NCBI GenBank assembly: GCA_020348925.1
Contig: CP070758.1
Coordinates: 1,074,237 to 1,135,038 of the forward strand
DNA: 60,802 bases
Reading direction: 5' to 3'
Origin: Gemmatimonadota bacterium
GTDB lineage: Bacteria > JBHIER01 > G020348925
Shown here: in pieces, positions 9,272-24,576 of the stretch
Numbering within the stretch: the first letter of the stretch is position 1
Layout of the letters: each line of letters begins with the position of its first letter
Notes under the pieces: model-generated
What the model saw: only the letters and a program-made list of their open reading frames with translations
What the model was told of the DNA's origin: nothing
Databases searched by the model: none
Translations under genes and position numbers: made by a program

Positions 9272-9481
9272 CTATTCGGTTGACAGTTTCACACTCACTG
9301 CCTTGGGACCTTTGGTTCCCTTCTCAACATCGAATTGGACCTGTTGCTCTTCTTCCAATGAATCGAACTCTACATCTATCAGGTCTGTCTGATGGAAGAA
9401 AATCTCTCTGCCGTCTTCTGCACTGATGAAACCATACCCGCGACCGCGAATCAGCGTCTTAATCGTTCCTTTCAAATCCAT
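9272..9481 (-). CDS. Cold-shock domain protein (CspA family)
   Basis: 69 residues forming a single cold-shock OB-fold domain. The RNP1-like motif GRGYGFISAEDG and RNP2-like motif REIFFHQTDL are present, followed by the acidic loop and GPKAVSVKL end. CSD proteins bind single-stranded RNA/DNA and act as RNA chaperones. The ATG at 9481 follows GGAAGGGGG. It lies about 100 nt downstream of rpsU in the same direction, so zinc-ribbon, rpsU and csp probably form one transcription unit. It differs from the second cold-shock protein at 12557-12757 and begins with DLKGTIKTL rather than the usual G-x-VKWFN. Confidence 0.9.
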   Translation of the reverse strand: MDLKGTIKTLIRGRGYGFISAEDGREIFFHQTDLIDVEFDSLEEEQQVQFDVEKGTKGPKAVSVKLSTE

Positions 9482-9585
9482 CACCCCCTTCCTTAGGTAT
9501 CAGGAGTTCTTCACCCCGAAAGATCTCTGCTCGTTCCTCAGTCAATGCATAAGGTCCCGCAGAAAAATTAAACTTACGACAACTA

Positions 9586-9777
9586 TTAATTTCTGCCCCC
9601 GTTTTTCTGTCGTCGTAACTCTGCACACCGCCTGGCGATTTTTCTCTTCTCGCTGGGCTTGATAAAGTGCCTGGACCTTTGAGCATCCCGTAAAATACCA
9701 GATCGCTTTACCTGTGTTCGAAAACGACGCAGAACGCGATCGATAGGCTCACCAGGTTTCACCTTCACTTCTACCAT
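9586..9777 (-). CDS. rpsU: 30S ribosomal protein S21
   Basis: 63 residues, basic. It starts VEVKVKPGEPIDRVLRRFRTQVKRSG and continues HFIKPSEKRKIARRCAELRRQ, matching S21 in length and pattern. S21 sits near the 3' end of 16S rRNA on the small subunit and aids mRNA engagement. The ATG lies inside the last codons of the upstream zinc-ribbon gene (7-nt overlap), suggesting translational coupling. Its company, a cold-shock protein and a leader-controlled zinc-ribbon gene, suggests co-regulation with translation or cold stress. Confidence 0.92.
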   Translation of the reverse strand: MVEVKVKPGEPIDRVLRRFRTQVKRSGILRDAQRSRHFIKPSEKRKIARRCAELRRQKNGGRN

Positions 9778-9977
9778 CGGTTATACCCACCTTGTCCACG
9801 AGGACTACGTCCGCTGCTCCGTCTTTCACCGCTCGTGTTCTGCCTCTTTCGAGCGTTGCGGCACGATTTACATCGCTTTGGATCCTGGAAACCTCTCTGG
9901 GTGTAATAGTTCTGTTCTTCCTCAGTGAACATGAACTCCCTTCCACAGTCTTGACAGCTAATGGTTTTGTCCGCCAT
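9771..9977 (-). CDS. Zinc-ribbon domain protein (zf-trcl-like), copy A
   Basis: 68 residues. Two CxxC knuckles, CQDC (residues 8-11) and CKSC (residues 36-39), flank the FTEEEQNYYTQRGFQDPKRC segment typical of small 'probable zinc-ribbon' proteins. The tail is rich in Arg, Gly and Ser, suggesting nucleic-acid binding. AGAGAGG precedes the ATG. It overlaps rpsU by 7 nt. A paralogue at 24099-24314 is nearly identical over the ribbon. Both are preceded by related leaders of the same length and the same promoter spacing. Molecular role not established. Confidence 0.85.
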   Translation of the reverse strand: MADKTISCQDCGREFMFTEEEQNYYTQRGFQDPKRCKSCRNARKRQNTSGERRSSGRSPRGQGGYNRW

Positions 9978-10240
9978 GAGATGATACCTCTCTTAAGATG
10001 AACGGTGAAACCCATGATTCAGTAAGATCACAATTCAGGGAGTTACAATAATCACAATTCCAGGGAAAGTTCTGCGATTGTCTTTGATGGAAAATCAAAA
10101 AAGATTTTAACGACAGGCAAAAGTAAAATTTGAACATCGCGCCATCAAACAATTGTAAAGCACCTCACGATCCACTGGCAACATAGGCAGTATCTTGTAC
10201 CGAATTGAATATAGATATGATCGAATATAAAAGTCAAGGT
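9978..10240 (-). promoter_or_regulatory. Conserved promoter and ~230-nt leader of zinc-ribbon gene A
   Basis: Promoter TTGACT (10237-10232), an 18-nt spacer, then TATATT (10213-10208). The leader to the ATG at 9977 shares ordered blocks with the leader of zinc-ribbon gene B: TGCCAGTGGATCG (10180-10168), an AATCGCAGAACTTTC-type block (10079-10065), and TTGTAACTCC (10048-10039). Block positions relative to promoter and ATG agree within a nucleotide or two. Long conserved leaders are known for cold-shock mRNAs; the mechanism here is unproven. Confidence 0.6.
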
Positions 10241-12556: not shown

Positions 12557-12757
12557 CTATAACTTCACCACCTTCTCCGCCTTCAAACCCTTTGAGTCCT
12601 CAATGATCTCAAATTCGACTTTCTCACCCTCGTAGAGAGTTTTGAAACCCTCACTCTGAATAGCGGAATGGTGGACAAAGACATCATCTCCAGACTCCTG
12701 TCCAATGAACCCAAAACCTTTACGGTCATTGAACCATTTTACATGTCCTACTGGCAT
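12557..12757 (-). CDS. Cold-shock domain protein (CspA family), second copy
   Basis: 66 residues, canonical length. [30 protein letters not shown] contains both RNP motifs with the expected aromatic residues. AAAGGAGGTGA lies upstream of the ATG. It is a monocistronic gene with its own promoter (12879-12906), a terminator-like hairpin in the leader (12798-12836) and a downstream terminator (12492-12537). That arrangement suggests control by attenuation or RNA refolding. It likely functions as an RNA chaperone in the cytoplasm. Confidence 0.93.
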
Positions 12758-12790
12758 CTATCTTTCACCTCCTTTCGTTTCAAATTTCGG

Positions 12791-12836
12791 TAAGAAAAAA
12801 CGGACGATGATCGAATTTGCCTATCATCGTCCGTTT
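12791..12836 (-). promoter_or_regulatory. Terminator-like hairpin in the cold-shock leader (possible attenuator)
   Basis: A perfect 14-bp inverted repeat (12798-12811 against 12823-12836, 11-nt loop) is followed on the minus strand by TTTTTTCTTACC. It lies downstream of a good promoter (12879-12906) and 41 nt upstream of the cold-shock ATG. It would therefore stop transcripts before the gene unless refolded or bypassed. It could also terminate a transcript arriving from further upstream. Confidence 0.65.
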
Positions 12837-12878
12837 CTTTATCCGTCGATGTCCTTACACTTTTCGATAATCAACGCA

Positions 12879-12906
12879 AATGTACACCTTTTTTTCGAAA
12901 AGTCAA
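12879..12906 (-). promoter_or_regulatory. Predicted promoter of the second cold-shock gene
   Basis: Minus-strand TTGACT (12906-12901), 16-nt spacer, TACATT (12884-12879). The -35 context CTTGACTTTTCG is shared with the promoter of zinc-ribbon gene B. The rest of 12907-13228 holds no supported gene. Confidence 0.5.
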
Positions 12907-24098: not shown

Positions 24099-24314
24099 CT
24101 ACCGATTGTATCCACCACCTCCGCGAGGTCCACGATGACCGCCCCGCCTATCCCCCCCCATTCCGCCCTTGGGATTCCTTCTCTTACGGGCCATCCGACA
24201 CGATTTGCACCGTTTCGGATCTTGAAATCCCTTCTCGGCGTAATAGTTCTGCTCCTCCTCGGTAAAGACAAAGTCTTTATCGCAATCCTGACAAGTGATG
24301 GTCTTGTCCGCCAT
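24099..24314 (-). CDS. Zinc-ribbon domain protein (zf-trcl-like), copy B
   Basis: 71 residues: MADKTITCQDC, then FTEEEQNYYAEKGFQDPKRCKSC, then an Arg/Gly-rich tail (RGGHRGPRGGGGYNR). It is very similar to the protein at 9771-9977 except that the tail is more Gly-rich, resembling an RGG nucleic-acid-binding tail. GGGAGGTG lies upstream of the ATG. Unlike copy A it is not followed by rpsU. The leader and promoter are conserved with those of copy A, so the duplication included the regulatory region. Confidence 0.85.
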   Translation of the reverse strand: MADKTITCQDCDKDFVFTEEEQNYYAEKGFQDPKRCKSCRMARKRRNPKGGMGGDRRGGHRGPRGGGGYNR

Positions 24315-24576
24315 GAGAAATACACCTCCCTCTTGGTAAAGAATAATGCCGTGGGCTCAGCGATCACTGCCTATGGAGTTACAAAAAACCGCAAAATGAG
24401 CGAAAGTTTGCGATTTGCCTATGATTAAAGGACGTTGTGAAATCATGACGAAAATCAAAAGCAGAACTTAAACGCCGTGTAAACGGAAAATTGTACTTCA
24501 CCTTTCGATCCACTGGCACCGCAGCCCCTTGGATTCCTATAGATGAAATATACACGAAAACCAATCGAAAAGTCAA
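24315..24576 (-). promoter_or_regulatory. Conserved promoter and ~230-nt leader of zinc-ribbon gene B
   Basis: TTGACT (24576-24571), 18-nt spacer, TATATT (24552-24547), exactly as before copy A. Shared leader blocks: TGCCAGTGGATCG (24518-24506), AATCGCAAACTTTC (24415-24402) and TTGTAACTCC (24384-24375). The -10 to ATG distance is 233 nt against 231 nt in copy A. The stretch 24577-24820 contains nothing else I can name. Confidence 0.6.

What the first reader, a model, noticed from the sequence alone, without database searches (positions are those of the whole stretch)
9978..10240. Conserved ~230-nt leader before both zinc-ribbon genes
Leaders A (9978-10240) and B (24315-24576) share an identical promoter layout (TTGACT-N18-TATATT) and ordered identical blocks of 10-13 nt, with the same spacing to the ATG. 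Intervening sequence differs, as expected for a selected RNA structure. Copy A controls rpsU and a cold-shock gene too, so a cold- or translation-responsive RNA switch is plausible.
Basis: partly seen in the sequence, partly recalled or inferred. Interest (0 to 1): 0.66.

Follow-up and report, generated by a model that had tools for sequence, protein, structure and literature searches.

The report
Shared leader of two zinc-finger genes
Two old duplicate genes for a small zinc-finger protein keep a strikingly similar stretch of regulatory sequence in front of them, so that stretch probably controls them, but nothing here shows that it is a cold-sensing RNA switch.

Summary
Leaders A and B (both on the minus strand) share a TTGACT-N18-TATATT promoter, identical blocks of 13, 11 and 10 nt in the same order, and near-equal spacing to the ATG. 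The duplication is not recent: synonymous sites of the two zf_Tbcl (PF13451) genes look saturated (3 of 10 fourfold sites identical), while the best leader blocks are 70-83% identical. The leader is therefore probably under selection.

There is no Rfam match. Neither leader folds better than shuffles. The two-sequence consensus fold is not significant (z about -0.7; E. coli csp leader pairs give -1.0 to -2.5). Predicted start-site accessibility hardly changes with temperature. No homologue was found in about 470 other genomes, but this genome's phylum has no second held member, so covariation could not be tested. Block 1 is also promoter-shaped (TTGCCA-N18-TACAAT), a DNA-level rival.

The link to translation and RNA chaperones is good: operon A is zf-rpsU-CSD, and a genome of another phylum carries zf-rpsU-RRM with the same overlapping junction.

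The well-supported RNA element nearby is different: four csp genes of this genome (one at 12557-12757) share a leader hairpin with 7 compensated pairs.

The parts
10208..10237 (-). Promoter P1 of leader A, TTGACT-N18-TATATT, inside CCTTGACTTTT
   Evidence: -35 context shared with leader B and the csp gene
9978..10201 (-). Leader A, about 224 nt from the expected transcription start to the ATG
   Evidence: start site inferred from the promoter only
10151..10180 (-). Block 1 of leader A: TGCCAGTGGATCG-NN-AGGTG-NNN-TACAATT; also reads as a promoter TTGCCA-N18-TACAAT
10019..10048 (-). Block 3 of leader A: TTGTAACTCC ... GTGATC ... CTGA, complementary to block 1 (possible long-range helix)
   Evidence: pairing not significant
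9771..9977 (-). zf_Tbcl gene A (PF13451), 68 aa with an R/G-rich tail
   Evidence: 5.1e-18
9586..9777 (-). rpsU (ribosomal protein S21), start overlaps the end of zf A by 7 nt
   Evidence: 6.1e-17; sequence
9272..9484 (-). Cold-shock-domain gene of operon A
   Evidence: 1.9e-20; no terminator-like site between it and rpsU
24547..24576 (-). Promoter P1 of leader B, TTGACT-N18-TATATT
24315..24540 (-). Leader B, about 226 nt from the expected transcription start to the ATG
   Evidence: start site inferred
24489..24518 (-). Block 1 of leader B, TGCCAGTGGATCG-NN-AGGTG-NNN-TACAATT (promoter-like GTGCCA-N18-TACAAT)
24357..24384 (-). Block 3 of leader B: TTGTAACTCC ... GTGATC ... CTGA
24099..24314 (-). 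zf_Tbcl gene B, 71 aa, 73% identical to A, no rpsU behind it

Best explanation
Leaders A and B are an old, duplicated 5' regulatory region that has been kept by selection in front of two zf_Tbcl genes. It most likely works mainly in the mRNA, in the manner of csp-type leaders: a strong sigma-70 promoter makes a roughly 225-nt untranslated leader whose short conserved, largely U-rich or unpaired blocks are contacted by RNA-binding proteins (the encoded CSD and zf proteins are obvious candidates) and so tune translation or stability of the zf gene and, in A, of rpsU and csp behind it. Shown: conservation, shared promoter, operon content, age of the duplication. Inferred: that the leader acts as RNA, which protein binds, and the direction of control.
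For: Leader similarity z 15 against shuffles with none upstream. Synonymous sites saturated while blocks are 70-83% identical. Conservation extends through the transcribed region to the SD and ATG, beyond any promoter. The operon encodes an S21 protein and a CSD protein. zf-rpsU with an identical RW-stop/ATG overlap recurs in G265 with an RRM gene third, and zf_Tbcl lies within 250 nt of a CSD gene in other genomes (L082, L090, L092). E. coli csp paralogue leaders show the same pattern of patchy 45-77% identity.
Against: No excess fold stability, no significant consensus structure, no temperature effect in prediction, no homologue elsewhere. Block 1 can be read as DNA. The saturation estimate rests on few sites. 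Nothing was measured.
Confidence: 0.45

Rival explanations
1. DNA-level control: tandem promoters (P1 plus a second promoter P2 in block 1, T/GTGCCA-N18-TACAAT) with a regulator site in the conserved P2 spacer GTGGATCG-NN-AGGTG. The leader RNA itself is then mostly unimportant.
For: Promoter-like match in both copies with the same 18-nt spacer, coinciding with the best conserved block. Conserved spacers are usual where a regulator binds.
Against: A promoter-like match arises in 13-26% of shuffled leaders. Conservation continues well downstream of P2 (block 3, SD). Allowing 3 mismatches, the core occurs nowhere else in the genome, so there is no regulon to back a regulator site.
Confidence: 0.28
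2. A structured RNA switch or thermosensor closed by block 1/block 3 pairing (CAGU-GGAUCG with UGAUC-ACUG, AGG-UACAA with UUGUA-CUCC) around a variable interior.
For: The conserved blocks can pair with each other in nested order: 17 pairs, 16 of them unchanged; permuting the blocks gives as good a fold in only 24 of 500 cases.
Against: Column shuffles do as well in 20-25% of cases. Shuffling the conserved letters gives 82/500. Pairs that never vary are no evidence. GATC is self-complementary. The B centroid lacks the helix. No predicted temperature response.
Confidence: 0.15
3. Leftover similarity from gene duplication or gene conversion with no function.
For: Only two copies, in one genome.
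Against: Synonymous sites of the adjacent gene are near saturation while blocks are intact and neighbouring leader stretches are random; conversion would have homogenised the coding sequence too.
Confidence: 0.07

Closest known systems
cspA-family 5' leaders of E. coli (Rfam RF01766, cspA thermoregulator)
   Same: Long untranslated leader after a strong sigma-70 promoter, short conserved blocks kept between old paralogues, genes for small RNA-binding proteins.
   Different: No Rfam match, different sequence, longer leader, weaker consensus structure than csp leader pairs in the same test; gene is zf_Tbcl, not csp.
Bacillus subtilis cspB/cspC 5' UTRs with cold shock boxes (described in PMC8307031)
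   Same: Conserved boxes shared by the leaders of paralogous RNA-chaperone genes; control by the encoded proteins considered.
   Different: No sequence relation was tested; those boxes have genetic evidence (suppressor mutations), these have none.
The csp leader of this same genome (window 12758-12872 and three other loci)
   Same: Shares the CTTGACTTT -35 context and the gene neighbourhood; all serve RNA-chaperone-type genes.
   Different: Has a covarying hairpin and U-rich sequence behind it that A/B lack; the R2 model does not hit A/B.

Membership tests
cspA thermoregulator (RF01766) | Covariance-model match at or above gathering score | tested here: not met
   No match to leaders A or B up to E 5; loci L063 and L089 also empty
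cspA thermoregulator (RF01766) | Precedes a cspA-family coding sequence | tested here: not met
   First gene is zf_Tbcl; a CSD gene is third in operon A only
RNA thermosensor (general) | Temperature-dependent accessibility of the start site | tested here: inconclusive
   Predicted accessibility almost flat from 5 to 70 C; prediction only
Structured cis-regulatory RNA (general) | Covarying base pairs across homologues | not testable with these tools
   Only two sequences; 5 of 40 pairs changed on both sides, but column shuffles give as good a consensus in 123/500
Structured cis-regulatory RNA (general) | More stable than shuffled sequence | tested here: not met
   z -0.84 and -0.58
Leader peptide / attenuation | Short upstream ORF with conserved frame, or terminator before the gene | tested here: not met
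   No terminator-like site in either leader; inspection of the A/B alignment shows changes at all codon positions and no shared frame
zf_Tbcl (PF13451) | Pfam match over the curated cut-off | tested here: met
   65.2 and 70.4 bits against 24

The most novel reading that the evidence does not exclude
A and B are two copies of an undescribed class of regulatory mRNA leader, found so far only in the single held genome of its phylum, that couples synthesis of a zf_Tbcl protein to ribosomal protein S21 and a cold-shock chaperone.
Probability: 0.25. Interest if true: 0.55.

Novelty: new variant of a known kind. Interest (0 to 1): 0.36.

Why it matters
zf_Tbcl proteins are common and without known function. 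No solved structure matched and full-text searches found no paper on the family accession or on a zinc-ribbon/S21 operon. A conserved leader and a recurring operon with S21 and an RNA chaperone (CSD here, RRM in another phylum) point to a role in translation or RNA remodelling, and give a concrete promoter-leader unit to test. The csp leader in the same window is a cleaner RNA element with compensatory changes.

Tried and rejected
Rfam at gathering and lax thresholds: nothing for A/B. blastn of leader A in 97 other genomes and on plasmids: only chance-level pieces. R1 covariance model in 386 diverse genomes, 4 genomes of the phylum of G320 and 82 of the phylum of G321: one hit at 24 bits (L095), which lies antisense inside an ORF, rejected; one at 20.7 bits covering only the non-conserved interior (L096), not followed up. 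Upstream regions of 28 clostridial and 28 other zf_Tbcl loci: no motif. Pattern scans of viral contigs: nothing. Leader peptide: no conserved frame. Anti-SD switch by the CTCC in block 3: considered and rejected by inspection, it does not match the SD of leader A. Common origin of A/B with the csp leader: one 13-nt match between B and L122 (1 of 300 shuffles as good) that A lacks; model R2 does not hit A/B.

Full report
What is there. Both leaders are on the minus strand, upstream of two zf_Tbcl genes (PF13451). Each starts with a sigma-70-type promoter TTGACT-N18-TATATT (10 of 12), 230 and 232 nt before the ATG. They align with a score far above shuffles (354 against 89, sd 17), and the similarity stops sharply upstream of the -35 box. 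It is patchy: promoter 72%, then 28 nt without similarity, block 1 83%, interior 54%, block 3 70%, a further 25 nt without similarity, and SD-ATG 80%. Only these two copies exist in the genome.

Is the similarity just recency? No. The proteins are 73% identical, and where the codon encodes the same residue only 14 of 36 third positions agree, 3 of 10 at fourfold sites, which is close to random. A neutral leader would have been erased. This rests on few sites, but it argues that the blocks are kept by selection.

Is it a structured RNA? The conserved blocks are partly complementary: CAGU-GGAUCG with UGAUC-ACUG, and AGG-UACAA with UUGUA-CUCC, which would close a long-range helix around the variable interior. 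The tests do not bear this out. Each leader folds no better than dinucleotide shuffles (z -0.84, -0.58). The consensus fold is matched by 123/500 global and 99/500 local column shuffles; restricting pairing to conserved letters gives 82/500, and permuting whole conserved blocks 24/500. As a control, pairs of E. coli cspA, cspB, cspG and cspI leaders in the same test give z from -1.0 to -2.5, against -0.6 to -0.7 for A/B, so the test has some power and A/B fall short. Predicted accessibility of the SD and start codon hardly changes from 5 to 70 C. Rfam gives nothing.

Does it occur elsewhere? Not in what could be searched: 97 other genomes by blastn; 386 diverse genomes, 4 genomes of the phylum of G320 and 82 of the phylum of G321 by covariance model; upstream of 56 zf_Tbcl loci; plasmids and viral contigs. 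The genome is the only held member of its phylum, so the absence is weak evidence and covariation cannot be judged.

DNA-level rival. Block 1 reads as a second promoter, TTGCCA-N18-TACAAT in A and GTGCCA-N18-TACAAT in B. Such a match appears in 26% and 13% of shuffled leaders, so it is not significant alone, but its coincidence with the best conserved block makes tandem promoters with a regulator site a serious alternative.

Function. Operon A is zf_Tbcl, rpsU (7-nt overlap) and a CSD gene, with no terminator-like site between them. In G265, of another phylum, zf_Tbcl is followed by rpsU with the same junction (stop of zf inside ATGGTA of rpsU) and then by an RRM protein. zf_Tbcl lies near CSD genes in three further loci (L082, L090, L092). 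Gene B stands alone. A role in translation or RNA remodelling is therefore reasonable by association, and self-regulation through the leader is the mechanism I favour, at 0.45.

A better RNA element next door. The csp gene at 12557-12757 and three other csp genes of the genome (L121, L122, L124) share a 115-130-nt leader with the same CTTGACTTT-type promoter, a TTTTCGAAA box, a CATCGAC box and a long hairpin followed by U-rich sequence. Of 20 consensus pairs, 7 show changes on both sides, 0 of 500 shuffles reach this, and sliding the helix destroys it. The window copy folds at z -4.18. It looks like a terminator-type attenuator in front of csp. CSD proteins affect read-through at terminators in B. 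subtilis (PMC8307031), which makes feedback control a testable idea. The R2 model does not hit A/B. RF01766 matches these csp loci only below its cut-off, with a model that also spans the coding region.

Verdict. A cis-regulatory leader is likely, RNA or DNA level undecided. A cold- or translation-responsive structured switch is not supported by any test available here.

Noticed in passing
window 12755-12906 (minus strand); L121, L122, L124: Leader of the csp gene, shared by four csp genes of this genome: promoter, TTTTCGAAA box, CATCGAC box, long hairpin with 7 compensated pairs and U-rich sequence behind it (window copy 12840-12795), then AAAGGAGGTG. Terminator-like attenuator, z -4.18.
   Followed up: partly
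window 9586-9977 and L064: zf_Tbcl-rpsU gene pair with the same overlapping junction (RW-stop over ATGGTA) in two phyla, followed by CSD here and by an RRM protein in G265.
   Followed up: partly
L064 1687-1890 (minus strand): Leader of the G265 zf-rpsU-RRM operon has no A/B motif but folds far better than shuffles (z -3.67), with a long stem GGUAUCGUAAAAAGU/ACUUUUUACGAUUGUAUC just before the RBS.
   Followed up: partly
window 10238, 12907, 24577 (minus strand): CTTGACTTT occurs only three times in the window, at exactly the three promoters of zf A, csp and zf B; 12 times in another 400 kb of the genome. Possibly a promoter class for RNA-chaperone genes.
   Followed up: no
L122 and window 24450-24470: 13-nt identity CTTTTGATTTTCG between leader B and one csp leader, absent from leader A; may be chance.
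   Followed up: partly
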